Assembly (NCBI GenBank): GCA_903845125.1
Contig: CAIMWS010000043.1
Coordinates: forward strand, 1 to 64,000
Source of the DNA: an uncultured Verrucomicrobiota bacterium
GTDB taxonomy: Bacteria > Verrucomicrobiota > Verrucomicrobiia > Limisphaerales > UBA1319
Reading direction: 5' to 3'
DNA length: 64,000 bases
The translations under genes and the position numbers were made by a program. Every line of letters starts with the position of its first letter. Within the stretch, counting starts at the first letter, position 1. The notes below the pieces were generated by a model. That model was not told where the DNA came from. It saw only the letters and a list, made by a program, of their open reading frames with translations, and did no database searches. Positions 27,180 through 44,622 of the stretch are shown piece after piece.

Positions 27180-28385
27180 TTAACGGTTGGGGCTTGCCAA
27201 CTGGTTCCGCCGTTTCAGTTCCTCCTCCAACCGCTGCCAGCAATACCATTGCATGCGCGGCAGGTGGAACGGCCCCTTCCACACATTGCCTTTCAAGCGG
27301 GTGGATACGCTGCCATCGCGATGCAGATACCCAAACCATTCCCCGTGCACCGGGTCGGGGAAGTGCGCATAGGACCAATCGTGGACCATTTGGTGCCACC
27401 GGGCATACTTGGATTCGCCGGTGAGCAGGTGCGCCAGGAGGGTGCCGATGATGGCTTCGTTGTGCGGCCACCAGAACTTCATATCGTGCCAATACTCCGT
27501 GCAGGGCAGGCCCTTCACGTCGCGGAAATAATAAATGCCGCCGTGGTCCCGATCCCAGCCCCAGTCCATCATCCAGTCGATGATGGTCGTGCCCAGCCGG
27601 ACCAGGCGCGGATCGTGGTTGCGCAACCGTGCCTCCTCGAGAATGAACCACCCGGCTTCGATGGCATGCCCGGGATTCATCATGCGTCCGTCGAAGGTGT
27701 CGATGAATTCGCCTTGAGGTCCGACGGTTTCCAGCAGGCACTTGAATTCGGGCTTGAGAAAATCCCTTTCAATCTCCGCGATGCACCGGTCAATGACCTC
27801 ATCGCACAAAGGATTGTTGGTGGCCTTCCGCAATTCCTGGGCGGTCACGATCAGGATCATCGGCATGACCAACCCCTTCATGGGGCGGGTGCGCGAATCC
27901 GTCTTGGGCTCGGGCTGGAAGTGCAGCACCCGCTGGAAAAGTTCCAAGGCCTGCTGCGCCGCCTCCTGGTTCCTGGCCGCGATCGAGTAAGCCGCCAGCG
28001 CCACAATGGCGAAAACCTCCGAAAAACAATAACGCCGCTTCCGCAGCGGCCGGCCTTCCCGCGTCACCAGGAAAAACATCCGGCCGTCCTGATCGAAACA
28101 ATGCCGGTTGATGAATTCGATGCCATGCCTGGAATATTCCAGCCATTCCGGGCGCTGTTCCACGGTGTTATACAAGGTGGCCAGGAGCCATGCGAAACGG
28201 CCCTGGAACCAGACCGACTTGTCCGTTTGCAGAACCGCGCCATCCTCACCGAGGGCGGTCAGGTAACCGCCCTGCTCCAAGTCGATGGCGCGTGGCAGCC
28301 AAAACCGCAGGGTGTCGTTCAGCAAACCGTCACGGTAAATGCGGAGATAGGATTTTATAAGGTCCAAGTCCATTTGCGTATCCAT
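27180..28385 (-). CDS. AGE/RnBP family N-acylglucosamine 2-epimerase-like protein
   Basis: ORF track starts at 28697, but MDTQMDLDLIKSYLRIYRDGLLNDTLRFW at 28385 gives about 401 aa, typical for AGE; FDGRMMNPGHAIEAGWFILEEAR, YWHDMKFWWPHNEAIIGTLLAH, HGEWFGYLHRDG. Confidence 0.9.
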   Translation of the reverse strand: MDTQMDLDLIKSYLRIYRDGLLNDTLRFWLPRAIDLEQGGYLTALGEDGAVLQTDKSVWFQGRFAWLLATLYNTVEQRPEWLEYSRHGIEFINRHCFDQDGRMFFLVTREGRPLRKRRYCFSEVFAIVALAAYSIAARNQEAAQQALELFQRVLHFQPEPKTDSRTRPMKGLVMPMILIVTAQELRKATNNPLCDEVIDRCIAEIERDFLKPEFKCLLETVGPQGEFIDTFDGRMMNPGHAIEAGWFILEEARLRNHDPRLVRLGTTIIDWMMDWGWDRDHGGIYYFRDVKGLPCTEYWHDMKFWWPHNEAIIGTLLAHLLTGESKYARWHQMVHDWSYAHFPDPVHGEWFGYLHRDGSVSTRLKGNVWKGPFHLPRMQWYCWQRLEEELKRRNQLASPNR

Positions 28386-28405
28386 ATTGAAAGGTTCAGA
28401 ATGAG

Positions 28406-29872
28406 TTATTCCCGGCCGCTCCCGGCGAGGTGGCCGCGCCGCCAAAACCGCTCGATTTCCTCCAGGCTTCTGCCTTTGGTTTCCGGCACGTATTTCCAGA
28501 AGAACCAGGTGGCCACCGCACAAATGGCGGCGGAAGTAAGAAAAGCCGCCTGCATGCCAAACCGGGCCGAATACCAGGGGAACAGCTGGGCGCTGAGCGC
28601 ATTGGTGCACCAGTTGGCGAAGGTGGCGATGGAAGCCGCCCGCCCGCGGATGCGGTTCGGAAATATCTCCGGCGTGAGCACCCAGATCACCGCACAAATG
28701 GAGAAGGCAATGCTGGCCATATAGACACAGATCACCAGGCCGATCAAAAGACCCACGGTTTTGGAGACGACTGCCCCTTGGGCTGCGAATAGGAACAAGC
28801 CACCCAGAACCGCCAAAGCGAGCGAGACCACGGCCATGCCCCCGACTAATAGCGGGCGCCGCCCCCAGCGGTCGATGACCATGAGCGCCAGGATGGTAAA
28901 GACCAGGTTGATGAGACCAAAGCCCGCCTGGCTGAGCAGCGCGGCGGCATCCTGGTATCCGGCGGCCATGAGAATCTTGGGTCCATAGTAAACGACGATG
29001 TTCACCCCGGATAGTTGCCCAAAAACCGAAAGCATCACCCCCACGAGCAGGGCCAGGCGCAAGCCAGGCCTGAACAGCTCCCGCACGGAGCCTTCCTCAC
29101 GCGCCAGGCCCTCCATTATTTCCTGCTGTTCCCGCCGGGCCGTTTCCGTGCCCCCGATGCGGGCGAGGATGGCCAGGCCGCGTTCCGCCTGCCCGGCCTT
29201 AAGGAGCCAGCGCGGGCTCTCGGGCACGAAGAGCAACAGGACGAAAAACACCACGCACGGCACCATCTCAGCCCCAAACATGCCCCGCCAAAACTCGGCC
29301 ACCAGGGTCCAATGCCAGACGCCATGCCCCCCGAAGGCGGAGGGATTATTCTGCGCGAACTGCAGGATCAGCCAGTTGGACAGGTAGGCCAGCAAGATGC
29401 CGATGACGATGGAAAGCTGGTAAAAGGCCACCAGCCGGCCACGGTGCCTGGGAGGCGCAAACTCCGAGATGTAAAGCGGCGCCAGCACCGACGCCATCCC
29501 CACCCCCACCCCACCGATCCATCGGGCAATGACGAGCACGTTGAACGTGGGTGGGATGGCGGAGTAAAGCGCCGAGACGAACAAAAACACCGCCGAAATC
29601 AACAGGATCGGCTTGCGCCCGAAGCGGTCCCCCAGCACGCCCGACACCGCCGCGCCGAGAATGCAGCCCACCAGGGCCGAGCTGGTGAACCAGCCCTCCA
29701 GCATTTCGGTCAGGCCATATTGCTGTTTGACCCGCTCGACGGTCCCCGAGATGACCGCCGTATCAAAGCCGAACAACAAACCACCCAGTGAAGCCACCAG
29801 GCATACCAGTGACAAAAACAGCAGGCTGCCGCGGGCCTGAACGTCGTTTGGCGGTGGATCAAAGCGGTTCAT
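28406..29872 (-). CDS. MFS sugar porter family transporter
   Basis: 488 aa; GLLFGFDTAVISGTVERVKQQYGL, GDRFGRKPILL, PESPRWLLKAGQAERG, FGQLSGVNIVVYYGP, DRWGRRPLLVGG, PETKGRSLEEIERFW. Confidence 0.95.
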   Translation of the reverse strand: MNRFDPPPNDVQARGSLLFLSLVCLVASLGGLLFGFDTAVISGTVERVKQQYGLTEMLEGWFTSSALVGCILGAAVSGVLGDRFGRKPILLISAVFLFVSALYSAIPPTFNVLVIARWIGGVGVGMASVLAPLYISEFAPPRHRGRLVAFYQLSIVIGILLAYLSNWLILQFAQNNPSAFGGHGVWHWTLVAEFWRGMFGAEMVPCVVFFVLLLFVPESPRWLLKAGQAERGLAILARIGGTETARREQQEIMEGLAREEGSVRELFRPGLRLALLVGVMLSVFGQLSGVNIVVYYGPKILMAAGYQDAAALLSQAGFGLINLVFTILALMVIDRWGRRPLLVGGMAVVSLALAVLGGLFLFAAQGAVVSKTVGLLIGLVICVYMASIAFSICAVIWVLTPEIFPNRIRGRAASIATFANWCTNALSAQLFPWYSARFGMQAAFLTSAAICAVATWFFWKYVPETKGRSLEEIERFWRRGHLAGSGRE

Positions 29873-29964
29873 AGCCTGGCTTGGATTTCATGATTTGCAC
29901 CCGGCCATGCTAAATTGGCCGGCGAGGTTAGTCGATAGCCAAAACAGTTTTGTTCGCCGGTGAA

Positions 29965-32889
29965 TTACTCAATCACCAGCCAGGTATATCCTTTGGCGGG
30001 GATTTCCACTGGCACTTGGACGTTGTATTCGCGGTCCAGGGCATACCGGATGGAAGCCCCTTCCCGCTCGCGGATCCGGGCAGCACCAGCCAGGCCGGTG
30101 TAATAAAGCGGAAGACTCAAAGTCCTTTTAACGGATTCGGGCAGCGGATTGTAAACCATGGCCAGGCCGCGGTGTTCCAGGGCGGGATTGACATGCAGCA
30201 TGCAGTCGATGTCCTGCCCATTGGGGCGCCGGACATGGATGATGTCGGAATCCAGGATGGCCCGGTATTTCTTGTACCAGGCGACGGTGTCCTTGACCAA
30301 CACACGGGTTTCCTCCACGTCGTAGAGGCGCGGCCCGCGGTAGCAGCTCTGGACTCCGGACCCAAAATTCTGCGCCAGGTGCGCGCCATACGCATCCAGG
30401 TGGTCTTTGAGTGGCTCGAGCGTGGCGGCCGGCCCCCCGCCGTGATATTCCACCAGCGGCGTCATCATCCAGCCCATGCTCGACAGCTTGTGCCAGGTGC
30501 CGTCGTAGATGTTCTGGCGGCCAATGAGGATCTGGTATTCGCGGGGCAGGGACCAGTTTTCCTCCCGGTAACCCATGCCGGTCTTGTTGCTGCCTTGGTG
30601 GAAGTAGCTGTCCGGCGCATTGACGAATATCCCCCGCCGCCGGCAGCCGTGGAAAAACTCGGTCATCTTCTCCCATTGCACCCGGAAGGAGTCCTCGCGG
30701 CCCTGGTGATACTTGTGTGTGGTGGACTCGCAAGGATAACCGTGGTAGGGACCATCGGTTTCGATGACGTCCTGCCCGACGAAATCCATGAAATCAAAGA
30801 GGTGCTTGAAGTAACGATCCACATACTCCGAGCCGAGGCAAAGGCTGGGCGGGTAAAAGTCCTGCTTGGCGTCATTGGCCGGCCCCTTGGAAGCGGTGGA
30901 GCAAAACAGGATGTAGCCGCCGATCCGGATGCCTTTGGAGTGGGCATAGTCGAAGTCCGCCTTGATCCGTTCCCAATATCGGCGATCCGTGCTGTTCATG
31001 TCGAAACCACTCCAAAAAGTGATGATGATCATCTCAAAGCCAGTCTCCACGCACTGGTCCACCGCGCGACGGATGGATTCGGAATCGGAGTTGCGCAGGT
31101 GCATGAAGATGGGGTTTTCCTGCGTCCAGGGCGCCACGGCGCGGAACATCTTCCGGCGGGCCAGGCCCTGGCGCTCGGCATCGTCGTTATCGTGGAGGGT
31201 CTCAAAGGTCCGGAACGAGGTGAAGACCTCGCCGGGTTTCAGGGTTTTGGCGAGGCCCTGCGAATACTGGCTCAGCAAAAGATAGCGCGCGGCCCCCAGG
31301 CTGGGGAAATCGCGGGCATCCACCGGCTTCCAGGGATGGTCCAAAGTGGTGTTGGAAATGTAACGCAGATCCCCGATGGGTTCCCGGCCTTCGGAGTAGG
31401 TGGCATAAAGCGGATCCTCCTCCCAGCGGGTGGTGGTCATCCTGCTGAACGTGTAATCGCTTTCGACCCAGATGCGCGAAGCCTGGTCGTGGGGCACCGC
31501 CAGCATCTCCGCCACCAACTGGCCGATCTGGATCTCCTTCAGGCCGGCGTTCCGGACCACCACCTGTTTGCTCAGGATCGGCAGGCCGTCGAACATCTCA
31601 TAATGCACCGCCACCTGAAGGCCGCCACCCGAACGGGATTGGAAATGCAGCGTCAGCCGCTTGCCTTTGGGGGGCCAAGCGGTTTCCGGCGCTCCGTAGC
31701 GCGGATGCCACGGGAGATTGCTGGCCACATCGCCGGTCTCCAGGCCGGTAAAACCGAGCGCTGCGGGATCACCCGTCAGCGTGGCGATCCAGGCACGGTC
31801 GAAGTAGTTGTGCACCGGCTGGCCGAGCAGGCCGCCAACGTGCAGTTTTTGACCATTCACGGTCAACACGGCTTCCGGGCGGATGGACCGCACGAATTCA
31901 GCGCCGGAACGCAGGTTCTTGAAGCTCATGGTGGCCGCCGCCGGGGCCGCCAAACTGGCATCGGCGACCAGGAACGTGCGACTGATCAGCCCGTTGGCCA
32001 GCCTGATCTGCGCGCTTTGGTGATCCGGACCGGGCAACACCTCCACTGCGGTGGGGGTGGCGGGCGCCTTGACCAGCCAATCCTCCGAGGCGGGGGCCGA
32101 ATCCAATTGATCAACCAGCCTGACCCCGGGCGTCTTCAATACTGCGGCCACCAGGCTCGAACGGACCTGCCGGCCTTCGGCCTGGATGCGCTTCAGCTCC
32201 GGAACGTCCAGCAGGAAATCCGCCACCGGGTCAAATTGGCCCGGCTGGAACGTGGCGTAGCGGACCTCGGCCACTGCGCCATCGAATGCCTCCCGCCCCG
32301 GGGCGGTGGCGCCGATGGAGAAATTCTGCGGTCCTCCGCCCAAACCCGGCAATTCACATATTTTCCGGCCATTGAGCCAGCCGCTCACCCGGTCGCTGGA
32401 CTTTACGATGGCCAGATGCGTCCATACCCCCGGCGCCACCGGCGCCAGCGGGGTGAACCCGATCCCGCCCACCAGGACACCCCAGTGATCGCCGGATTGA
32501 CCCAGGATGAAACCGATGCCGCCATGGCCGTTGGCCACCACCGTATGCAGGCCGCCCGCATTCCCCAGGCGCGCGCAAGCCCAGGCCTCCAGCACAAAGT
32601 TGCCGCCCCCGGCCAGGTTTCGCGCCACCCGGTAGCACTGGCTGGGATCGCTGAACTGAATGGATGAATCATAGTGCGAACACCGTGCCCCGGGAGCACT
32701 GGCGGCGGCTTTCGGCGCCCCCTCGCGCGCCAGATCCGGCCCGCCCGGCGCGAGGCTTTTCCAGGTTTCCGGCGCGGTGGGGGCTTGGACGCCGCGGAGG
32801 TCACGCAGGTTGTAGTGTGCCACTTCCTGCACCGCCGCCGCGCCAGACAACGGCAGGATAACCGCTAAAAAAAGGCCAAGTTTATTCAT
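29965..32889 (-). CDS. Secreted glycoside hydrolase-like protein: N-terminal LamG domain plus clan GH-D-like barrel
   Basis: 974 aa; signal peptide MNKLGLFLAVILPLSGAAA; LamG-like FVLEAWACARLGN...GVWTHLAIVKSSDRVSGWLNGRKI; barrel MIIITFWSGFDMNSTDRRYWERIKADFDYAHSKGIRIGGY...DVIETDGPYHG. Confidence 0.7.
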   Translation of the reverse strand: MNKLGLFLAVILPLSGAAAVQEVAHYNLRDLRGVQAPTAPETWKSLAPGGPDLAREGAPKAAASAPGARCSHYDSSIQFSDPSQCYRVARNLAGGGNFVLEAWACARLGNAGGLHTVVANGHGGIGFILGQSGDHWGVLVGGIGFTPLAPVAPGVWTHLAIVKSSDRVSGWLNGRKICELPGLGGGPQNFSIGATAPGREAFDGAVAEVRYATFQPGQFDPVADFLLDVPELKRIQAEGRQVRSSLVAAVLKTPGVRLVDQLDSAPASEDWLVKAPATPTAVEVLPGPDHQSAQIRLANGLISRTFLVADASLAAPAAATMSFKNLRSGAEFVRSIRPEAVLTVNGQKLHVGGLLGQPVHNYFDRAWIATLTGDPAALGFTGLETGDVASNLPWHPRYGAPETAWPPKGKRLTLHFQSRSGGGLQVAVHYEMFDGLPILSKQVVVRNAGLKEIQIGQLVAEMLAVPHDQASRIWVESDYTFSRMTTTRWEEDPLYATYSEGREPIGDLRYISNTTLDHPWKPVDARDFPSLGAARYLLLSQYSQGLAKTLKPGEVFTSFRTFETLHDNDDAERQGLARRKMFRAVAPWTQENPIFMHLRNSDSESIRRAVDQCVETGFEMIIITFWSGFDMNSTDRRYWERIKADFDYAHSKGIRIGGYILFCSTASKGPANDAKQDFYPPSLCLGSEYVDRYFKHLFDFMDFVGQDVIETDGPYHGYPCESTTHKYHQGREDSFRVQWEKMTEFFHGCRRRGIFVNAPDSYFHQGSNKTGMGYREENWSLPREYQILIGRQNIYDGTWHKLSSMGWMMTPLVEYHGGGPAATLEPLKDHLDAYGAHLAQNFGSGVQSCYRGPRLYDVEETRVLVKDTVAWYKKYRAILDSDIIHVRRPNGQDIDCMLHVNPALEHRGLAMVYNPLPESVKRTLSLPLYYTGLAGAARIREREGASIRYALDREYNVQVPVEIPAKGYTWLVIE

Positions 32890-32893
32890 AGGA

Positions 32894-33868
32894 TCATTTC
32901 TCAGGAATAGTGGTTGGGATGGGGAGACGTTGAGCGCCAGGGATCATGGTCGACATCGCCTCCGCGAACCGGGCGCCGAGTGTCAACATGCCATCGGCGG
33001 TGAAATGAGCGGCATCGCCGCTGACGCGCGGCAAATCGATGGTTTTGACCAACCGCGTTTGGCGGTCCTCCCGGCAGACCTCCTCCTGGCCTTGGCGGGC
33101 GATATCCCCAAACGCCCAGGTGTGGCTGTTCACCTGGCCGATGGCGAACGGCAGGGAAGGCGCCTGCAGATCTTTCCGCACCGAGCGGATGAAGCCGCTT
33201 AATAGCTGGGCGTAGTCCCCGGCCATTTTCCGGCTGATCCCTCCTTCGTGCTCCCCCTGCATCCAGATAAAACCGGACAACTCCGCTGGTTTCCCCTCGC
33301 GTTCAAGGGCGGCTAACGCGGCGCGGAGGTTGGCCAGGAGCGCCCGGTAAAGCGTCCCGGCCTCCTGGCCGTCGGATGGCGGGTGCCAATTGCGGCCCTG
33401 GTCATTATAGCCGGCCAGGGCGGGAATGTAATCCTGGTAATCCGCGCTCCGGGCAATGCCGGTCCCGCCTGAGGCATATTTGACGATCGCGATCTCCTCT
33501 CCCGGCAGCATCCGCTCCAGTTCCCTGGCCAGGCCAATCTCCGGCCCAAAGGAGCCCGCCTCGCCCACCCGCAGCGTGGTCCACAGGTTTTCCTGGTTTT
33601 GGAGCGTATCCTTCCCGGGCCAATACCGGATCCGGGGTTGCACCCGCAGCGCCTCCGGGAACGCTTCCCGGCCGCCGTGGTATTGCCGGATGTGGTTGTA
33701 ACCTTGCGCGTTGGACTGCCCCGAGACGACAAACACCCGCCACGGCCGCCGGCTTTGGGCCGGAGCCAACGCCGGGGCGGCCAGCAGCACGCACGCCACC
33801 GCGGCGAGCAACTGGCCAAGGAATCGTTGCGCCGCCATTCCGCAGGGGCCGCGGCACCCGGTTTTCAC
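32894..33868 (-). CDS. SASA-domain carbohydrate esterase (sialate O-acetylesterase/CE6-like)
   Basis: 324 aa; VFVVSGQSNAQGYNHIRQ; FIWMQGEHEGG; 4-bp overlap with the upstream GH89 gene. Confidence 0.85.
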   Translation of the reverse strand: MKTGCRGPCGMAAQRFLGQLLAAVACVLLAAPALAPAQSRRPWRVFVVSGQSNAQGYNHIRQYHGGREAFPEALRVQPRIRYWPGKDTLQNQENLWTTLRVGEAGSFGPEIGLARELERMLPGEEIAIVKYASGGTGIARSADYQDYIPALAGYNDQGRNWHPPSDGQEAGTLYRALLANLRAALAALEREGKPAELSGFIWMQGEHEGGISRKMAGDYAQLLSGFIRSVRKDLQAPSLPFAIGQVNSHTWAFGDIARQGQEEVCREDRQTRLVKTIDLPRVSGDAAHFTADGMLTLGARFAEAMSTMIPGAQRLPIPTTIPEK

Positions 33869-36800
33869 TTTTCAAACGCCATTACTTCGACCAAATGCCG
33901 GCCGGTATTGGCTGAGTTGAGGGTCTGGGTCACGCGCAAATAGCGCACCGTGCGCGGTGGAAAAACGCAGGTATACCCCTCCTCAGCCGCGGGTTCTTTC
34001 TGGTCGCGGCGGTCGGCCACCAACTCCCATTGCCGGGCATCGTGGGAGACTTCCAATTTGAAACCATAATGGCGGCGATCGCCGTAGTAACCCACCACCA
34101 CCACCCGGCCGATCCGGGTTGGCTGCCCGAAATCGACCTGCCACCAGGCTTGCGGGTCGTGGGTGACGTCGGTGGCCCAATACGCTTCCGTGCTGTTGCT
34201 GAAACCGTCATTGGCCAGGCTGGCCGGATGTCCCGGCAGGGCCGCCGAACAGGTGGCCGGCTTGCCCGTGGTCAGGCTCACCGCGTTGGGGGTGAAATCC
34301 GGAAGATATTTTTCGCAGAGCTGGCGCCCCAGGACCACCGGATCCCCCTGGGGCGCGGTGGCATAAGTTTCCCGGGCCCGGGTCCACCGCACCTCCAGGT
34401 CGCGGACCTCCTGTTCAAAAGCTCCGGAGTCAAACGCCGCCCCGCCTTCCAAGGCCGCGCCCATCCGCCGGAAAAACAGCTCCCAGCGCGGCAGGTAAAA
34501 TCCGGTGATCAGGCCGGACCACTGCCGCTGGGCATATTCGTGGAGCACCCCATCGCGGGGGCCCCAGAGGGTGATCAGGTTCCGGGCATTCCACTCGTAG
34601 AGCCGGCGTTCCTCGTCATTGCCCGCCCACTGCCGGGCATCGGCCAGCCAGCGGCCCAGGAGGAATTCCTCGCGGGTGCCCAGCAACCGGTCCAGGTCGC
34701 GGAGCAGTTCCAGGAACCGGGCCGTGGCCTCGCCAAAAGCCGGGCGATCCTTGAGCTCGTAGGCCCGGGCAACGCGCTGGAGCTTCATGGCGGCCAGGCT
34801 GTCCAGGACGTGCCGCCCCACGTGTACGAGATCAAACCGGTAGGCATCCACGCCCCCCAACTCGCCACCGCAGGCAAGCAGTTTCTGCCAGGCTTGGGCC
34901 AGGCGGGATTTTTCGTAAGGTGCGCCGGCGACGGCCCACTGCGGCCGGCCGGAAAAGGCGGGGCGGTTGCACACCAGGGAGTCGGTGCGGTTGGGCTCCT
35001 GGTAGGCGGTTTCACGCAAGGTGCTCCAGGCCTCCGCGGCGGCGGCGGGCAGCCGCCCGTAGCGGCTGAGGGCAAATTCCGGCACCCAGTTTTTCAGGTC
35101 CGGGGCGGCGGCCCGCCAGGCCATTTCACCCATGAGACTGTTCACCACGGGATTGTAGCCCAGCGCTTCGTTCACAAAACCGATGCCCGACAAGCGTCCG
35201 CGCTGCGGGCTGGTTCTGGCGGCTTGGAGGGCGTCCGCGATTTGCGGCAGCCCGCCGTGGAGGCTCACCACCCCGCCAAAATCCTGGATCAGGCAATACA
35301 GCCACGGCTTGCCGTAGAACGCCTCGGTCCGGCTCCAAACCGGAGCTTGCTCGCAATAAAGATCCAGCAGGATCATCCGGTCATCCGGCACCGCCCCCAG
35401 CAAGGCTTTGGCCTGGGGCGGCTTCCAGAACTGCGGCGCATTGTGGAAGACCCAGCCTTGCATCACCCAGATGGCCTCGGGATCTCCCGCCCGCATGGCC
35501 TCGTAAACCCCTTTACCCATGGCCGCCAGAAAGGGTGGATCATTGCTCGGGGGGGGCATTTCAATGAAGGTATCCGAGGCGTAAAGATGATCGGTGCCAA
35601 ATTCGCGGGTCTGCTCCGCGATGAACCGCCGGCCTATTTCCACGAACAGCGGCTGGCTGGGATCCAGGAAACGGGTGGGCGGGAAGTCACACCACGAAGG
35701 CAGTTTGTGCAGTGTGGCCTGGGGAAACACGTTGGTGAGGGCGGCCGGCACATGACCGGTGAAACCTTGCAGCACGGGCGTCATGCCCAGTTCCCGCTGG
35801 CGGCCGACGATCCGTTTCTGCAGCGCCAGGTGCCGGTCGATCCAGCTTTGCGGCAGCGGCCCGCCCCAGGCGTCGATGCACCCCATCCAGCCGAACGGCA
35901 GGTAGGCGGGCCCCACAAAAAATTCCTCCAGCTGGCGGTCGGTCAAGCCCAGGTCATGGTAAACCTTGCGCCAGATCGCCTCCTGGCCGGTGACGGACAA
36001 GGGCATATTGATCCCTTCCAAAGCCATCCAATCAATCAAACGTTCCCACTGGGCCCAGTCGAACCACGGCAGGCTGTAGCTGAAAGCGCAGAAATTCAGG
36101 TAATAACGGTATTTGAACGGGCTCACCTGGCGGACCTTGCCCGGAACCTCCGGCAGCGGATCCGGCAGCGCCAGGTTGCTGCCCCACAGCGACATCTGGC
36201 AGTGGCAATAATGCTTCAAATACCAATTCAACGCCGAGGCTTGCGAAACCCCGTTGTTGCCGCGCAGGATGACGCGCCCATCCCGGGTTTCAATTTCAAA
36301 AACATCGCCCGCCGGATCCTTGGGGATGTTTTCCAGCACGAACTTTTGCGCCTGTCCGGGGAGCAGGCGCGCCACCAGCCCGCGGGCGGATGGGGCATCC
36401 ACAATGGGCTGATCCCCCATCAGTTGCGCCAGCATCGGCTCCGCCGCCTGCACCCAGGCCTCGGTCCCCGCCGGCCCGGGATGCAGCAAATCCCACATCA
36501 GGTCCGTGTTGATTTTCCCGTCCGGGCGCAGGAACACCTGGTTGATATCGAGCCAGAACACCTGCCGGCCATCCGCCAGTTGGGCGGTGAGCTCGCCCGC
36601 GCGGCGGCAGGTCTCAATGCATTGGGCGGAGGAATTGAATGCCGGCGGGCTGATCCCCTGCTCCTGGTCCCCACCGCGCGGGAATATGCGCAGCAGGAGA
36701 ATCCTGGACGCTGGGTGGCGCAGGCGGATCAGATCGACAATCGCCTTGGTGCCCGCGAAAACCTCCTCCGGCGTATGGACTTTGGGGAAATGCCGGTCAT

Positions 36801-37176
36801 CGGTATTGTTCGTGCCGATCAGGATCATGAATACCTTCGGCGAGCGGGCAAAATCGAGTTCCCCGTGGAGCAGGTTCCAAAGGATGTTCTCGGTTCGGTA
36901 GCCATTATGGCCGAGATTGATCGCACGGCGTGGCGCAAAATGCCTGTCCCAAACCGCCTTCAGCGGCTCGTATTTTCCGCCGAGTTCGCCGATGGTGTGG
37001 GTGATCGAATCGCCAATCAGCACGAGGTCGTAGTCCCCGGATTTAACCGCTTTTACTTTCTCCTCGTGCCGGGCAGTGGGTGAAGCGGCCGGATAATCGG
37101 CATCGCCCGGCTTGGGTTCAGCCGCCGCCAGCGCGGATGCCAAGGCGAAAATCGGCCAAAAAATGGCTTTATTCAT
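33865..37176 (-). CDS. SGNH/GDSL esterase - GH89 alpha-N-acetylglucosaminidase - F5/8 type C (CBM32-like) fusion
   Basis: Start at MNKAIFWPIFALASALAAAE (37176; track ORF to 37344); GDSL block DLVLIGDSITHTIGE and ILIGTNNTDDRH; NAGLU block YRYYLNFCAFSYSLPWFDWAQWERLIDWMALEGINMPLSVTGQEAIW; C-terminal WWQVDFGQPTRIGRVVVVGYYGDRRHYGFKLEVSHD. Confidence 0.93.
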   Translation of the reverse strand: MNKAIFWPIFALASALAAAEPKPGDADYPAASPTARHEEKVKAVKSGDYDLVLIGDSITHTIGELGGKYEPLKAVWDRHFAPRRAINLGHNGYRTENILWNLLHGELDFARSPKVFMILIGTNNTDDRHFPKVHTPEEVFAGTKAIVDLIRLRHPASRILLLRIFPRGGDQEQGISPPAFNSSAQCIETCRRAGELTAQLADGRQVFWLDINQVFLRPDGKINTDLMWDLLHPGPAGTEAWVQAAEPMLAQLMGDQPIVDAPSARGLVARLLPGQAQKFVLENIPKDPAGDVFEIETRDGRVILRGNNGVSQASALNWYLKHYCHCQMSLWGSNLALPDPLPEVPGKVRQVSPFKYRYYLNFCAFSYSLPWFDWAQWERLIDWMALEGINMPLSVTGQEAIWRKVYHDLGLTDRQLEEFFVGPAYLPFGWMGCIDAWGGPLPQSWIDRHLALQKRIVGRQRELGMTPVLQGFTGHVPAALTNVFPQATLHKLPSWCDFPPTRFLDPSQPLFVEIGRRFIAEQTREFGTDHLYASDTFIEMPPPSNDPPFLAAMGKGVYEAMRAGDPEAIWVMQGWVFHNAPQFWKPPQAKALLGAVPDDRMILLDLYCEQAPVWSRTEAFYGKPWLYCLIQDFGGVVSLHGGLPQIADALQAARTSPQRGRLSGIGFVNEALGYNPVVNSLMGEMAWRAAAPDLKNWVPEFALSRYGRLPAAAAEAWSTLRETAYQEPNRTDSLVCNRPAFSGRPQWAVAGAPYEKSRLAQAWQKLLACGGELGGVDAYRFDLVHVGRHVLDSLAAMKLQRVARAYELKDRPAFGEATARFLELLRDLDRLLGTREEFLLGRWLADARQWAGNDEERRLYEWNARNLITLWGPRDGVLHEYAQRQWSGLITGFYLPRWELFFRRMGAALEGGAAFDSGAFEQEVRDLEVRWTRARETYATAPQGDPVVLGRQLCEKYLPDFTPNAVSLTTGKPATCSAALPGHPASLANDGFSNSTEAYWATDVTHDPQAWWQVDFGQPTRIGRVVVVGYYGDRRHYGFKLEVSHDARQWELVADRRDQKEPAAEEGYTCVFPPRTVRYLRVTQTLNSANTGRHLVEVMAFEK

Positions 37177-37809
37177 GTTGGACGGTGATTTTGAGGGTTT
37201 CAGGGGATCGGATTCCGGATTTCGGCCACTTGGGGAAATCGGCTGTGCCAGGAGGTTTCCCCGGCTGTAACCGACCCAAGGTGTCGTATTGCTGGAGCGG
37301 GTAAAAACCACCAGCCAAGGCCGGACTGGTGCGCCGGTTGGCAACCTGGCGGCCGCAACCGGAACTGGCCAGCGCTCCGGTGTTGGCCAAGACCATCACC
37401 CAATTGGGCCGGTCCAGATTGCCCTGTATGGCGGTCGTTTTCATCCGGGAATGCTCATTCTGTTTCACCTGAGTCTGCCGAACCCAATCGAAAGTCTCAA
37501 GGTTAGAATAGGTAAGAACAGGTGCCTTTGCCGGCGCCATTGGGAATCGGGCCGAGCTGGCTGTGAGCCGGATGATAACTGAAAGCCCGGGCCAGCGGGG
37601 AATTGCCATGCTTCCGGCGGCGGCGGGTCCCACCTACCAATAATCCAGCCGGACTGAGGTTGCGCCCGATGCTGATTCAACGCACCCGCTCGGATCACGG
37701 CTTGGAAAATCATTCCATCTTGCACACCCTCTGTGAGACCGCCCGGCGGCAAGTTAAAAAGGCGATAGGCTTGTTGGTGGTTTACACCAATCAACACGAA
37801 TCAACTCGT

Positions 37810-38240: not shown

Positions 38241-38621
38241 TTATGAAAGTTGAACCATGGTGAACCAACAATCCGACTTCGAAATGTCCGAAAAGATCAC
38301 GCTGGCCAGTTGGTCCACGTCGTCGTAACTGTAACCGTAGGCATAATAGTTCACCTGCCCCGTCAGGTTCCCGTTGTTGTCGTTGGTGTACCAGCTGGTG
38401 GGGCCGCCCGTCAGCTGGTTCAGACTATCGACCCTGAAACTGGTGCCCGAGTCGTTGTCGGTTCGCCGGTTCAGGTTCCAAAAGCAACCAGGCGGCAAGG
38501 CTTTGCCGCCCAGGCATGAGGAAGGCACCTTGGCGCTACAGTCCCACCCTCCCAGCAGGCCAAGCAGGCAGGCCAGGCATCGCCAAAAGGCAACCCGATC
38601 ACTTATTATCCCAACGTGCAC
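38241..38621 (-). pseudogene. RHS/YD-repeat protein fragment
   Basis: ORF segment FRVDSLNQLTGGPTSWYTNDNNGNLTGQVNYYAYGYSYDDVDQLASV matches the RHS repeat pattern (LNQLT...YDxxGNLT...YxYDDxDQL); flanking residues do not look RHS-like and the ORF is very short. Confidence 0.6.
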
Positions 38622-38962: not shown

Positions 38963-41900
38963 CTACACGCTTTGGGTGGGAGGAACGGGCCAGTGCCCCA
39001 GCTTTTCCAGCCAATCACCGCCCGGCAGGGCGTAAGGCCGGAACATTTCCCAATAACCTTCCCGCTCGTTGTAATAGATGGCGCGGTGCAGGCCGAGGCT
39101 GGCGGCGTCGGCGTTTTCCAGCAAGCTGGCGGAATCATTGGCACTCATTTGGAAGGCCACCCGCAGGGAAATTTCACTGGTCAACTTCCGGCCCAGAAAG
39201 CGGTTCACATTGGCATAGGAATCGCAAGTGATCAGGCAATGCAGCCCCAGGCTGGGGCCTTCAGTGATCAGTTCCGGCAGTATCTTGGCTGGATTGGGCC
39301 CTTCCGAGCGGTCCTCCAGCGAAAAACTGAATTCCTCTTCCTGGCGCAATTTTTTGAAATTCTCCAAACCCAAAACAAACAGGAATGTGGCCGGGCGCTC
39401 CGCGCCGGGAGCCAGCCCCTCGCCGGATTTCATCGACTCCGCCAAGCCACCGAAAATCCCAGCCAGTTCGTGGGCCATGGGGCGCTGGACCGGGTGCGAA
39501 ATCCCCTGAAGGACGCGATCCAGGAAAACCCGCTGCCGCGAGCCGGGAGGGGAACTATCCAGCACTATGAAGCGCACTCCGCCGGGGGGATATTGGCTGG
39601 CCAGCGAAACCAGGCCGATCCCGGCGATGGCCAGCGCGGCCTCGTCGCGCTGCCCCACCATCAGGAGATGATTCCCGCCTTGGCGTTGGAAACGCGCTTC
39701 CGTCGGACCTTTGACCGAATTAGGGGCACCCAGCCAAACGCGGGGCGCGGTGGGCACGGCCACCGGCTTGCTCTCCATGATTTTTGCCAATTCCACGTTT
39801 TCCCGGACATCGGCGGGGGAATTGCCTTCAAAAACCACGGGGCCGGGAAGCGGCCGCGGCCACTGCCGAGCCTGGGCTTGGAGCCGGGCCAAGTGGCGGT
39901 CGCGCGTTTCGTCGGATAGCCAGACGGTTTGGAAGGGGCTGTTGCCCTCCAGCGATCCGGCGGCATCATTATAGATGCCCTCGCCGGGCCGGGACAACAA
40001 CCGCGGGGCGGCGTTGTTTTCGTCCATGATGAGATAGGCATCCGCCTCATTGCATTGGAGCGCCACCCGGATCACCATCTGGCCGAGGGTGGCCCGCGCC
40101 AGCGTGTAGGCTCCGCCCAAGGTTTGCGAACCCAGCAGGACATGAATGCCGAAAGCCCGGCCTTGCCGGACAATGCGGTCCAGCAGCAGGGCGGCGCTTT
40201 GGGAAACGCGGTCCTCCTCCACGAAATATTCCTGGAACTCGTCGATGATCAGGAGACTGCGCGGGATGGGCTCCGTGCCGCCGGCCCGCTGGTAGCCCGC
40301 CAGGTCTTGCACGCCCAACCGCCGGAACAGATCGCCCCGGCGTTGCAGTTCCTCATCCACCCGCTGCAGCACGCTCAAGCCGAACTGGCGGTCGCTTTCG
40401 ATCGCGATCACCCGCGCGTGAGGCAGGCGCCGGTTCACATAGCATTTGAATTCCACCCCCTTCTTGAAATCGACCAGGTAGAACTCCACCTGTTCCGGGC
40501 TGCACCAAAGCGCCAGGTTGGTGATGATCACATGGAGCAAGGTGGACTTGCCCGAGCCGGTTTTCCCGGCGATCAAGGCGTGCTGCCGGGTCCCTTTGCC
40601 GATGGCCAGGTATTGGAACTTGGTCGCCCCGGAACGCCCAATGGCCACGCGCAGTTCGTCGGTGGTTGGCCTCGTCCACATTTCCGACTCCCGAGGCGCC
40701 ACCTGGTCAAACGGCACCTCCACCCGGCCGGCGTCCCGGCCGCATTGGCCGACTTTTTTCAAAAACCGGGTGGCGAACTCGGGTGAAGGGGGTGCGTCAA
40801 GAAAGAGCCTGGCTCCCGGCAGCCGCCGGCCAGCCAGCGTGAAGCCAAATTCCGAGCCCGTGAGGCAGAGGCAGTTTTTCCGCAACTCATCCGGCACAAA
40901 ATCGTGCGGCAGGGCAAAGCGGTGATCCCAATGCACCAGGAGGAACACCCCGCAGCGCGCGCCGCTGGCGGCAATGTTCAGCAGCCGGCGCGCCGCGGTC
41001 TCGCTGAAATTCACCGGGAAGCCCGCGACCACGACAAAATGATATTTCTCCGCGATGGAACCGGCCTGGCGGTTGTATTCGGAGATCGTGGCATATTCGT
41101 TGCGCAAGTACATCTGGATCACTTTTTCCATGTGCTCGTTCAACTCGCCCAGCTTCTCCTCCATCTGCGCCGTTTGGGTCCAAATCCGGCTGTTGACCTG
41201 GCTCTCCAGGTAGTCGGTCAAATGCATCAGGCCCGCGAAGCTCTGGCCCAGCCCGGCGGGGTCAAACAAAGTGAAGCTCAACCGGCCCGGGGGCGACATG
41301 GACAACAACCGGAAAACGATGTTGTTGAGGGACTGAACCGCCTCAGCCGCCCCATCCTTATGGGTTTCAAACAAAACCGATCCCTGCCTGGGATAGGCGA
41401 GCAGCAAGGGGACTTCGAATTCGGTGGGGCACGGCAGCGTCACCGTTCGCGGCGCCACGCCCAGCTGGGCGTAATGCTCGATCGCCACCTCCAGGCGCCC
41501 GAAACGGGCAAACTCGCCGAAGGCAGCCGGCGGCGTCCATTGTTCCCAGCCGGAATCGTTCCATGGCGGAAAAAAGCGGGCGGCGGCGCGCTGGTTGTTT
41601 TGCAGGGTTTCCCAGATGGAACCCAGGCTGGCCTGCCCTTCCTCCGCGAGTGCCTGGCACTGGGCTTGGTGCTCCGCCTTCAGCCGGGCCAGGGCCGCCT
41701 CCCGTTCCCGAGCGGTGCTCCCCTGCCGGACCTCTGCCGATTGCCGCGCCTGGCTCACGAAAGCGGTTTTATTGGCTTCCAGCCGGCCGATTTGCCCCTG
41801 GAAATACCGCTCATTCCGCTGGAGTGCCCGCTGTTCCCGCTCCGCGATTTCCCGGGGTTCGCGTTCGCGCCGCCTGTCCGCTTCTTCCAGGATTTCCTGC

Positions 41901-42859
41901 CACTGTTGATCCAGGGTGGATTTGGCTTTTTGGTGATCCTGGGTAATACGCTCCTGGTCCCGCAAGTGGCGGGTACCGGCCTTGGCCAGGCCCGCTTCCA
42001 GCAAGCGGTACAGCCAGGCCAGGTTCCCGGCTATCGCCTGGGCACTCTTTGCGCCCTGGTGTCCCCCCAGCCAATAAAGCAATCCCACGAGCAGACACAC
42101 GGCGCCCAGGGAACACCCCGTCTGCCCGTAGGTCACTGGAAACCAATGGTAGTATTGGGCGAGCGGCACGACGGCCGCGTGGCCCAGTGCCAGCAACAGC
42201 AACAACAGGCCGATGGATAGCCTCCGGAAAACAGCCGGCAGCACCAGGCGCCGATGGGCTTTTAATTGGTCCCGGGTGGCCGCCTGCAGTTTTTGCGCTT
42301 GGGCGATGAGCTGATGTTCGTCTGCGGCCAGGTCGGGTTCCGGCCATGGGTGGTTGGGATCCAGCATCCGGCGAAACCGGGGATAACCACGAAAAACCTG
42401 GAGTGTTTCCAAATCCAAAGCGTGAATGGCTTCCCGCTGCTCCTCGGTTTGCCGCTGGAAATCCGTCAATTGCGCGGCGGATTGCGCCAGGTCCGCCTCC
42501 CGGCGCCGCTCCAGTTCAAGAAAACCCTTCTGAATCTGGAATTTCCGGCGTCCCTCCCATTGCTCCAGCCGGTCCCGGGACTGTTTGAGGCTGCTTTTGG
42601 CGGCTTTCCGGATGATTTCCTGCCGTCTCTCGCATCGGGTTCGGCGGCGCTCTGCTTCGGCCTGGAAGTCCGCTTCCGCTTTGGCCAAGCCCTCGTCCAG
42701 CTGGCTGGCCAGGTTCCAGGCCGTAGTTTCGTGAAGTTTGGTTACCGCCGCCAGCTTGGCCCGGTATTCCGCGGCCAGTTTTTCCTCCCGCGCCGCGAAC
42801 GTGCCGATCACCCCCTTCAATTGATCCAGCCGCTCGAGGAGTTCCTCAATTCCCAGCAT
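38963..42859 (-). CDS. FtsK/SpoIIIE-family (EssC-like) ATPase with N-terminal coiled coils and two TM segments
   Basis: ORF track to 42889; ATG at 42859 (MLGIEELLERLDQLKG) lies 1 nt after the upstream stop. Walker A HALIAGKTGSGKSTLLH, Walker B SLLIIDEFQEY, FtsK-like VDFKKGVEFKCY and IHVLLGSQTLGG; TM segments IGLLLLLLALGHAAVVPLA and LGAVCLLVGLLYWLGG. Confidence 0.88.
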   Translation of the reverse strand: MLGIEELLERLDQLKGVIGTFAAREEKLAAEYRAKLAAVTKLHETTAWNLASQLDEGLAKAEADFQAEAERRRTRCERRQEIIRKAAKSSLKQSRDRLEQWEGRRKFQIQKGFLELERRREADLAQSAAQLTDFQRQTEEQREAIHALDLETLQVFRGYPRFRRMLDPNHPWPEPDLAADEHQLIAQAQKLQAATRDQLKAHRRLVLPAVFRRLSIGLLLLLLALGHAAVVPLAQYYHWFPVTYGQTGCSLGAVCLLVGLLYWLGGHQGAKSAQAIAGNLAWLYRLLEAGLAKAGTRHLRDQERITQDHQKAKSTLDQQWQEILEEADRRREREPREIAEREQRALQRNERYFQGQIGRLEANKTAFVSQARQSAEVRQGSTAREREAALARLKAEHQAQCQALAEEGQASLGSIWETLQNNQRAAARFFPPWNDSGWEQWTPPAAFGEFARFGRLEVAIEHYAQLGVAPRTVTLPCPTEFEVPLLLAYPRQGSVLFETHKDGAAEAVQSLNNIVFRLLSMSPPGRLSFTLFDPAGLGQSFAGLMHLTDYLESQVNSRIWTQTAQMEEKLGELNEHMEKVIQMYLRNEYATISEYNRQAGSIAEKYHFVVVAGFPVNFSETAARRLLNIAASGARCGVFLLVHWDHRFALPHDFVPDELRKNCLCLTGSEFGFTLAGRRLPGARLFLDAPPSPEFATRFLKKVGQCGRDAGRVEVPFDQVAPRESEMWTRPTTDELRVAIGRSGATKFQYLAIGKGTRQHALIAGKTGSGKSTLLHVIITNLALWCSPEQVEFYLVDFKKGVEFKCYVNRRLPHARVIAIESDRQFGLSVLQRVDEELQRRGDLFRRLGVQDLAGYQRAGGTEPIPRSLLIIDEFQEYFVEEDRVSQSAALLLDRIVRQGRAFGIHVLLGSQTLGGAYTLARATLGQMVIRVALQCNEADAYLIMDENNAAPRLLSRPGEGIYNDAAGSLEGNSPFQTVWLSDETRDRHLARLQAQARQWPRPLPGPVVFEGNSPADVRENVELAKIMESKPVAVPTAPRVWLGAPNSVKGPTEARFQRQGGNHLLMVGQRDEAALAIAGIGLVSLASQYPPGGVRFIVLDSSPPGSRQRVFLDRVLQGISHPVQRPMAHELAGIFGGLAESMKSGEGLAPGAERPATFLFVLGLENFKKLRQEEEFSFSLEDRSEGPNPAKILPELITEGPSLGLHCLITCDSYANVNRFLGRKLTSEISLRVAFQMSANDSASLLENADAASLGLHRAIYYNEREGYWEMFRPYALPGGDWLEKLGHWPVPPTQSV

Positions 42860-42860
42860 G

Positions 42861-43073
42861 TCACTCACAATCGTTCCTGGCTTTGGCAATTATCCTGTCG
42901 AGTTTCTCGCAAATCACCGACGCCTTTTCCATTTGTTGGGCCAGCGGTTCGATGTATTTTTTCCCAAACTCGCCGCCGCGTGCGTCCCGCCAATAATTCC
43001 TTGTTTCCTCCCATTGGAGCAACAGGTTTTTCGTGATGGCGGAGAGCCGGGCGCGATTGGCATTAAGACTCAT
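42861..43073 (-). CDS. Small helical WXG100-like protein (W-x-D-x5-F)
   Basis: 70 aa; QWEETRNYWRDARGGEFGKKYIEPLAQQMEKA; located between the coiled-coil gene and the FtsK-like gene with tight spacing. Confidence 0.65.
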   Translation of the reverse strand: MSLNANRARLSAITKNLLLQWEETRNYWRDARGGEFGKKYIEPLAQQMEKASVICEKLDRIIAKARNDCE

Positions 43074-43082
43074 AACCGGCGT

Positions 43083-43664
43083 TCAGACCTTGGGGACCTC
43101 TGTTCCCGCCGGGGGCTGGTGCGCGCCGTCGGCACCGGGAGCGCCCTCGGAAGTGCCGCCGGCTGCGGCAGGATGGACCAAAGCTGCCCCTGGCATCATT
43201 TGGGTATAGGCTTCCAACGTGGATCGGATCTGCTCCAGGTAAGCCACCGCATGCACGAGGTCGGCCGCGAGAAAGGAGTTCAATTGATCCAGCTGCCTGG
43301 TCAGCGGCAGGGTTTGATTCTCCAACTCCCGGATCCATTGGCGGGTATGCTGCACTTTTTCCTCCGCCTGCCGCAGAGCCGCCTGGGCCCGGGCCACGTT
43401 GGCTTGATGCGCTGCCGTCGGCTGGCGCAGGCCGGACAGGCTGGCGCCGAAAAGCTCCTGCCGGGCCTGCTCCAGCTCCCGGCTCCGCACTCTCACCTGG
43501 TTTTCCCAATAAACCCGCCGGTCGCTTTCCAGCCAGCTCCGGGTGCGCCGGACTTCGTCGCAGATGTCTTCCAGCGCGGGCCGCGCTTTGCTCAGGAAAA
43601 CAATCAGCCCCGCCCGGAAGGATTCCAGGGCATCCAGGGAGGCGACTTGAGCGCGTTCAGCCAC
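43083..43664 (-). CDS. Coiled-coil protein of WXG100/FtsK-like operon
   Basis: 193 aa; extended helical heptad-like sequence (QVRVRSRELEQARQELFG...NVARAQAALRQAEEKVQHTRQWIRELENQ), A/G/P-rich tail; 9-nt gap to the next gene and 6-nt gap from the previous gene. Confidence 0.7.
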   Translation of the reverse strand: MAERAQVASLDALESFRAGLIVFLSKARPALEDICDEVRRTRSWLESDRRVYWENQVRVRSRELEQARQELFGASLSGLRQPTAAHQANVARAQAALRQAEEKVQHTRQWIRELENQTLPLTRQLDQLNSFLAADLVHAVAYLEQIRSTLEAYTQMMPGAALVHPAAAGGTSEGAPGADGAHQPPAGTEVPKV

Positions 43665-43670
43665 GGCAGA

Positions 43671-43943
43671 TCAGCGCTGACGCAAATAATCCTCGATCCG
43701 CTGGGCTTTGCGCAGGAGAAAAGGGGTTTGCAGGTTCGACGCCTCCACAAATTTTTTGAGCGATTTCATGATTTGTGAGAACTCCTCGGCGAACTTGGCG
43801 TGTTCCTGGTCCTGCCAGGCGTCGCTCAAAGCCGCAAAACGCGCCTGCAAGGAAACCATCCGGTTTTGCAGATCCTCGTTGAACCGATTCAGTTCATCGG
43901 CGAACCGCCGGACTTTTTCGGGATCCATTACTGCCTGGGCCAT
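43671..43943 (-). CDS. WXG100-family-like protein
   Basis: 90 aa two-helix protein MAQAVMDPEKVRRFADELNRFNEDLQNRMVSLQARFAALSDAWQDQEHAKFAEEFSQIMKSLKKFVEAS; Trp turn motif W-Q-D followed by F at +8; first gene of an operon with an FtsK-like ATPase. Confidence 0.78.
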   Translation of the reverse strand: MAQAVMDPEKVRRFADELNRFNEDLQNRMVSLQARFAALSDAWQDQEHAKFAEEFSQIMKSLKKFVEASNLQTPFLLRKAQRIEDYLRQR

Positions 43944-44190: not shown

Positions 44191-44541
44191 CTATTTGGCG
44201 CTGGAAGCCTTGCTTTTCCTGGCGGGGGCGGTTTTTTTGGGAGCCGCCTTTTTAGCCGGACGCTTGGGTTTGGCAGCCGCTTTGGGCGGAGGGCTGGCCG
44301 GTTTTGGAGCCAGCTTGGGCGCGGTTTTATCGTGAATGATCTGCCGCATCCGGTCCAGCTTGCCATCAATCTGCGCTTTCGCTTTGCCCAGGTTGTCCTG
44401 GGCAAAGTTGATGCTGTTGGTCAGGATGGAGCAGCCCTGGCGCAGACGGGAGGAAAAAGATCCGTCGGTCAGTTCAATCCCCTTGCCCCGCAAAAATTTG
44501 CCGAGGTTATCGTAGATTTCGTCTTTTTTGAGCTTTTTCAT
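44191..44541 (-). CDS. Small protein with histone H1-like Lys/Ala/Pro-rich C-terminal tail
   Basis: Start at MKKLKKDEIYDNLGKFLRGKGIEL (44541; track ORF to 44574); C-terminus PPPKAAAKPKRPAKKAAPKKTAPARKSKASSAK. Confidence 0.7.
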   Translation of the reverse strand: MKKLKKDEIYDNLGKFLRGKGIELTDGSFSSRLRQGCSILTNSINFAQDNLGKAKAQIDGKLDRMRQIIHDKTAPKLAPKPASPPPKAAAKPKRPAKKAAPKKTAPARKSKASSAK

Positions 44542-44622
44542 ATTTGTATGGCATGCCTGCCGATTTCTCACCATACATCGTTATAGCACACCTGCCATTA
44601 CGAGAACAGTCGATTTTTATAA

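What the first reader, a model, noticed from the sequence alone, without database searches (positions are those of the whole stretch)
38963..43943. Candidate minimal, divergent type VII (Esx)-like secretion operon
Four tightly packed minus-strand genes in transcription order: a 90-aa WXG100-like protein, a 193-aa coiled-coil protein, a 70-aa helical protein, and a roughly 1300-aa FtsK/SpoIIIE ATPase with TM segments. Gaps are only 1 to about 10 nt. WXG100 plus a membrane FtsK-like ATPase is the conserved core of Esx/T7SS (EsxA/EssC in Firmicutes, EsxAB/EccC in mycobacteria). No recognisable EsaA, EssA, EssB, YukD, EccB, EccD, EccE or mycosin was found nearby, and the setting is an apparently Gram-negative, Verrucomicrobiota-like genome. 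It could be a stripped-down secretion, surface-assembly or DNA-handling system.
Basis: partly seen in the sequence, partly recalled or inferred. Interest (0 to 1): 0.88.

Follow-up and report, generated by a model that had tools for sequence, protein, structure and literature searches.

The report
Minimal WXG100/EccC-like module in Verrucomicrobiota
Four linked genes encode a stripped-down relative of the type VII protein-export machine, with one membrane motor and three small helical partners; Verrucomicrobiota have passed it down vertically without toxins or the usual accessory parts, and its job is untested.

Summary
Four minus-strand genes at 43943→38963 encode a 90-aa WXG100 protein (Pfam PF06013, above the curated cut-off), a 193-aa two-helix hairpin with a disordered tail, a 70-aa WXG100-like helical protein, and a 1301-aa three-domain EccC/EssC-type ATPase. 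The ATPase has two predicted transmembrane segments, and only its middle domain keeps Walker motifs. The same four genes, in the same order, occur in 47 of 49 inspected relatives; flanking genes are not conserved. The ATPase occurs in 51 of 87 good genomes of the order, and its tree follows genome families, so the module is inherited vertically. YukD and EssB are absent. Zhang et al. 2012 noted the class in a footnote ("solo WXG", only the middle ATPase domain active, including verrucomicrobia) and called it mobile. Plasmid relatives carry a coiled-coil nuclease or longer coiled-coil protein where this module has the plain 193-aa hairpin. The best reading is a resident, toxin-free, membrane-anchored version of that class, working like a minimal type VII exporter of its own helical complex. 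Export itself is not shown. I rate it a new variant of a known kind.

The parts
43671..43943 (-). w90: 90-aa WXG100 (Esx-like) protein with W-x-D in place of W-x-G; first gene of the operon
   Evidence: PF06013 E=2e-9 above cut-off; 46/46 aligned orthologs hit it; profile matches HP0062 and EsxB structures; 27 invariant columns
43083..43664 (-). c193: 193-aa two-helix hairpin (residues 6-76 and 82-156) with a disordered tail; occupies the gene slot that holds longer coiled-coil or coiled-coil-nuclease proteins in plasmid relatives
   Evidence: AF2 mean pLDDT 86.9, helices 6-76 and 82-156; no Pfam family; orthologs 173-210 aa; slot comparison
42861..43073 (-). s70: 70-aa helical protein with invariant W21, W28-x-D30 and F36; probable divergent second WXG100-type partner
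   Evidence: Alignment A1; a few orthologs hit WXG100 weakly, best E 9e-4; one found by a whole-genome WXG100 search, E 0.008; w90-s70 profile comparison not significant
38963..42868 (-). 1301-aa EccC/EssC-type ATPase: coiled coil, two TM segments (about 208-226 and 251-269), coiled coil, then three FtsK-like domains of which only the second keeps Walker A/B; GTG start overlaps the s70 stop by 8 nt
   Evidence: NCBIfam EccCa 1.3e-33, below cut-off; PDB sequence hits EccC/YukB; TM and Walker analysis; AF2 and Foldseek top hit EccC 4nh0 E=2.9e-31 over 979 columns

Best explanation
This is a self-contained four-gene relative of type VII (Esx/EccC-EssC) export, resident in Verrucomicrobiota and Lentisphaerota. 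[quoted passage not shown] The module is inherited vertically as a unit. Inferred: the three helical proteins pack into one bundle, as LXG, Lap1 and Lap2 do in Firmicutes. That bundle docks on the degenerate D1/D3 domains, as Esx signal peptides dock on EccC. ATP turnover in D2 then moves the bundle, or the 193-aa protein with its proline/alanine-rich tail, across the inner membrane. The exported object would be the helical complex itself rather than a toxin, because no orthologous hairpin carries a toxin domain and the genome has no other clear WXG100 protein.
For: WXG100 identity. EccC/EssC as best relatives by family model, sequence and predicted fold. Two TM-like segments in 40/47 orthologs and Walker motifs only in D2. 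Four-gene order in 47/49 loci, in 71/80 named loci with most of the rest cut by contig ends, and in 13/13 phylum-wide loci. No conserved flanking genes. One WXG100 above cut-off in 35 of 36 operon genomes and none above cut-off in 6 genomes without the ATPase. Vertical inheritance: 12 label changes against a minimum of 11, shuffled mean 22.6. LXG-Lap precedent: a ~200-aa helical domain plus two ~100-aa hairpins form the pre-secretion complex (PMC9600955). Plasmid relatives with WXG - coiled-coil nuclease - SUKH immunity - small protein - ATPase in matching order.
Against: No secretion data exist for any member that I found. No YxxxD/E export motif is evident by eye in w90. No outer-membrane route is encoded. 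c193 is not detectably homologous to LXG, and Foldseek finds only generic coiled coils. s70 being WXG100-like rests on motif and weak hits; w90 and s70 profiles do not match significantly. The plasmid relatives checked lack the pair of TM segments of the verrucomicrobial anchor, and the authors of PMC11090510 expect a different mechanism for such TM-less forms.
Confidence: 0.6

Rival explanations
1. An intracellular defence or stress module. The ATPase and its helical partners act inside the cell, like the WXG100/EssC-like extensions of CoCoNuT and TerY-P loci, without exporting anything.
For: The closest ATPase relatives on plasmids sit beside CARF, vWA, PP2C and kinase genes or TerD genes; PMC11090510 and PMC4978471 link such pairs to CoCoNuT and TerY-P.
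Against: The verrucomicrobial ATPase has TM segments those relatives lack. No defence genes recur beside it. It is vertically inherited in the majority of an order, unlike typical defence islands. No effector or nuclease domain is present.
Confidence: 0.2
2. A fossil of a mobile toxin-exporting type VII element that settled on the chromosome and lost its toxin and immunity genes.
For: A plasmid relative has a nuclease-tipped coiled coil plus immunity gene in the same slot; Zhang et al. call the class mobile.
Against: The module is conserved as a unit across the phylum, with w90 at 82% mean column identity and an invariant D2 active site. That is strong purifying selection, not decay. It could still be a domesticated descendant.
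Confidence: 0.12
3. An FtsK/SpoIIIE-like DNA pump with coiled-coil accessory proteins, for chromosome or plasmid handling.
For: PF01580 hit; FtsK motors among fold matches.
Against: EccC/EssC outrank FtsK clearly by sequence and fold. Two of three motor domains lack Walker motifs. WXG100 partners are the hallmark of type VII, not of DNA pumps.
Confidence: 0.06

Closest known systems
Solo-WXG / middle-domain-active YueA-like ATPase class (Zhang et al. 2012, PMC3482391 Table 1 footnote 6; HP0062/HP0066 of H. pylori, PMC4978471, are probably of this class)
   Same: WXG100 protein with no fused toxin; three FtsK-like domains with only the middle one active; verrucomicrobia explicitly listed
   Different: The footnote gives no gene composition and calls the class mobile. 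Here the unit is four genes, TM-anchored and vertically inherited.
CoCoNuT/TerY-P-associated EssC-like ATPase operons (PMC11090510) and the Caballeronia, Helicobacter and Rhodococcus plasmid loci found here
   Same: WXG100, coiled-coil protein, small protein and ATPase in the two loci with upstream partners; D2-only motor; N-terminal coiled coil described for the CoCoNuT forms
   Different: Those lack the paired TM segments, carry nuclease-tipped or longer coiled coils and sometimes immunity or defence genes; this module has none.
T7SSb LXG-Lap1-Lap2-EssC (Firmicutes)
   Same: A ~200-aa helical protein with two small helical proteins, plus an EssC-type motor
   Different: No EsaB/YukD, no EssB, no toxin domain; D2 rather than D1+D2 active; c193 not detectably LXG by sequence
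T7SSa ESX/EccC (mycobacteria, Thermomonospora)
   Same: EccC fold over all three motor domains; WXG100 partner
   Different: EccC D1 is the active domain (established knowledge) versus D2 here; no EccB hit (that search had no positive control); one WXG100 plus non-canonical partners instead of an EsxA/EsxB pair

Membership tests
Type VII secretion (Esx/EccC-EssC) | WXG100 family protein | tested here: met
   PF06013 above cut-off
Type VII secretion (Esx/EccC-EssC) | Membrane-anchored three-domain EccC/EssC ATPase | tested here: met
   Fold match to EccC over 979 columns; predicted TM segments; but below the EccCa/EssC equivalog cut-offs
Type VII secretion (Esx/EccC-EssC) | Accessory core YukD/EsaB and EssB/YukC | tested here: not met
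   0 of 30 operon genomes for each, with the Bacillus subtilis control ringing
Type VII secretion (Esx/EccC-EssC) | EccB (T7SSa) | tested here: inconclusive
   0 of 30, but no control genome rang
Type VII secretion (Esx/EccC-EssC) | EsaA, EssA, EccD, EccE, mycosin | not tested
   No separate search run; flanking genes are not conserved
Type VII secretion (Esx/EccC-EssC) | Export of WXG100 proteins dependent on the ATPase | not testable with these tools
   Needs a secretome comparison
Solo-WXG / middle-active ATPase class (Zhang 2012) | Solo WXG protein, no toxin fusion | tested here: met
   90 aa in 47 orthologs; one WXG100 above cut-off in 35 of 36 operon genomes
Solo-WXG / middle-active ATPase class (Zhang 2012) | Three FtsK-like domains, only the middle one active | tested here: met
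   Walker motifs only in D2; three-domain fold
Solo-WXG / middle-active ATPase class (Zhang 2012) | Mobile behaviour | tested here: not met
   ATPase tree follows genome families; no match in viral contigs; plasmid hits are distant, at most about 33% identity over part of the protein. This was an interpretation by the authors, not a definition.
T7SSb LXG-Lap | LXG domain (PF04740) | tested here: not met
   LXG not among the families hit by c193 or among the 25 most-hit families of its orthologs; the whole-genome LXG search did not ring at c193 in any of 30 genomes
FtsK DNA translocase | FtsK gamma DNA-directing domain and active C-terminal motor | tested here: not met
   No gamma-domain hit; C-terminal motor domain lacks Walker motifs

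The most novel reading that the evidence does not exclude
A resident, diderm type VII-like exporter reduced to one D2-only motor and three helical proteins. It would serve a housekeeping or envelope role rather than toxin delivery, and would stand as a separate Verrucomicrobiota/Lentisphaerota subtype of type VII secretion.
Probability: 0.4. Interest if true: 0.8.

Novelty: new variant of a known kind. Interest (0 to 1): 0.6.

Why it matters
The smallest set of parts that can run type VII export is an open question. A four-gene, vertically inherited version in diderm bacteria, with a single active motor domain and no toxin, would show which parts are essential and how such export copes with an outer membrane. 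It also gives concrete gene composition to a class known mainly from a table footnote and from mobile loci, and it is testable in cultured Verrucomicrobiota.

Tried and rejected
DNA-pump reading: rejected because EccC/EssC outrank FtsK by sequence and fold. PADLOC defence matches: the SspH and mad8 hits cover the FtsK domain alone. c193 as LXG: no sequence hit, and Foldseek gave only generic coiled coils. Profile comparison of w90 with s70 and with c193: not significant. Viral contigs: 133 pattern matches, none encoding a relative. The V. spinosum essential-genome paper discusses canonical FtsK; my term search found no WXG100 or secretion text.

Full report
The window holds four minus-strand genes in the order 90-aa WXG100 protein (43671-43943), 193-aa coiled-coil protein (43083-43664), 70-aa helical protein (42861-43073) and a large ATPase ending at 38963. 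The mechanical ORF starts at a TTG at 42889, inside the 70-aa gene. Orthologs begin at a GTG that overlaps the preceding stop, which places the start here at 42868 and gives 1301 aa. The overlap recurs: 44 of 49 loci have TGT at the cysteine codon that supplies this GTG.

Identity of the small parts. The 90-aa protein passes the Pfam WXG100 cut-off, and all 46 aligned orthologs hit the family. Its profile matches the solved structures of H. pylori HP0062 and EsxB. The WXG motif reads W-x-D here. The 193-aa protein has no family. AlphaFold2 predicts a confident hairpin of two long helices, residues 6-76 and 82-156, with a disordered tail, and Foldseek finds only generic coiled coils. The 70-aa protein keeps W21, W28, D30 and F36 in every ortholog. 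A few orthologs hit WXG100 weakly, but its profile does not match that of the 90-aa protein significantly, so calling it a second WXG100 is a probable reading, not a shown one.

The ATPase. Its best curated models are EccCa, EccCb and EssC, all below their cut-offs; its best solved relatives by sequence are EccC and YukB. Forty of 47 orthologs have two hydrophobic segments before residue 350. Walker A (GKTGSGKST) and Walker B (LLIDEFQE-like) are present only in the second motor domain; the first and third lack both. The AlphaFold2 model of residues 430-1301 (mean pLDDT 84) matches Thermomonospora EccC across all three domains as the top PDB hit, ahead of EssC and FtsK. The TM-scores are modest (0.37 over the whole length), so the relative placement of the domains is not established.

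Conservation and distribution. In the same order the ATPase is found in 80 of 146 genomes, 51 of 87 good ones. Of 49 loci examined, 47 hold all four genes in order; L044 is cut by a contig end and L068 lacks the 90-aa gene. Of 80 named loci, 71 hold all; most others are cut by contig ends, while L104 and L110 look like real departures. The two sets overlap in part and should not be added. A phylum-wide search with the 193-aa profile found it in 14 of 291 genomes, the window's own included, and the 13 others all had the four genes. Named carriers are Verrucomicrobiota and Lentisphaerota, with one Bacteroidetes and one Omnitrophota label that may be misbinned MAGs. No flanking gene family is conserved.

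What is missing. In 30 operon genomes YukD and EssB/YukC are absent, with the Bacillus subtilis control positive. EccB gave nothing, but no control rang, so that is inconclusive. One genome has an LXG hit above cut-off. Of 36 operon genomes searched for WXG100, 35 have one hit above cut-off; in the 36th, G036, the ATPase match begins at residue 84, so the operon is probably cut by the contig end. Six genomes without the ATPase have no WXG100 above cut-off.

Resident, not mobile. On the ATPase tree of 47 rows, twelve genome-family labels need 12 changes, where 11 is the minimum; shuffles average 22.6 and none of 200 was as low. Named loci group into Lentisphaerota near the base, then subdivision-3 and Verrucomicrobiales/Chthoniobacter-type clades, with the plasmid sequences far outside on long branches. 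No viral contig encodes a relative.

Precedent. Zhang et al. 2012 state in a table footnote that verrucomicrobia and other lineages have solo WXG domains with a distinct three-domain ATPase, only the middle one active, and call these mobile versions of T7SS. PMC4978471 treats WxG plus FtsK as a minimal type VII set and names HP0062 and HP0066. PMC11090510 describes TM-less, D2-only EssC-like ATPases with two WXG100-type proteins and a coiled-coil nuclease, and cites Anantharaman et al. 2012 for a stand-alone mobile system. My searches of this paper library found no description of the four-gene verrucomicrobial module; most subscription papers, Anantharaman et al. 2012 included, were not read.

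The slot comparison. A Helicobacter plasmid has a WXG100-like 89-aa protein, then a helical protein ending in a WHH/colicin-type nuclease domain, a SUKH immunity protein, a 77-aa protein and the ATPase. A Caballeronia plasmid has WXG100, a 436-aa coiled-coil protein, 113 aa, 76 aa and the ATPase. The gene order parallels ours, with the 193-aa hairpin in the place of the toxin carrier and the 70-aa protein in the place of the small protein. Sequence similarity of the 193-aa profile to these proteins is weak; the best is a Rhodococcus protein at E 7e-5 in a very small search. The correspondence of slots is therefore a matter of gene order, not of shown homology.

Mechanism. LXG effectors of Firmicutes, with a helical domain of about 200 aa, need two small hairpin proteins to form the pre-secretion complex (PMC9600955). 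By analogy I propose that the three small proteins form one bundle that docks on the degenerate motor domains and is moved by D2. The assembly and the transport are inference; the parts, the motor anatomy and the inheritance are shown. The very high conservation of the 90-aa protein (82% mean column identity) fits a fixed structural role better than an arms race.

Noticed in passing
window 38241-38621, minus strand: A 126-aa ORF just downstream of the operon contains RHS/YD-repeat-like text (GGPTSWYTNDNNGNLTGQ...) but no Pfam hit at 1e-3; it looks like a fragment.
   Followed up: partly
window 33865-37344, minus strand: GDSL hydrolase, alpha-N-acetylglucosaminidase (three NAGLU domains) and F5/8 type C domain in one ORF, in a glycan-degradation neighbourhood with SASA esterases.
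   Followed up: partly
window 44191-44574, minus strand: 127-aa protein upstream of the operon with a Lys/Ala/Pro-rich C-terminal tail resembling histone H1 tails; no family.
   Followed up: no
window 28001-30000: AT skew of 0.219 stands out against values within about 0.13 elsewhere in the window.
   Followed up: no
L165 8345-8773: In a Deinococcus plasmid relative a separate 142-aa coiled-coil protein with one TM segment precedes the TM-less ATPase, as if the membrane anchor were split off.
   Followed up: partly
L169 2700-5381: A human-gut phage-like contig carries a distant relative of the ATPase.
   Followed up: no
L124 and L106: Loci titled Bacteroidetes and Omnitrophota carry close relatives; L124 falls inside the Verrucomicrobiota tree, so the labels may be misbinned MAGs.
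   Followed up: partly
L068, L104, L110: Loci with the ATPase but without a detectable 90-aa WXG100 gene upstream; L110 also lacks the 193-aa gene.
   Followed up: partly
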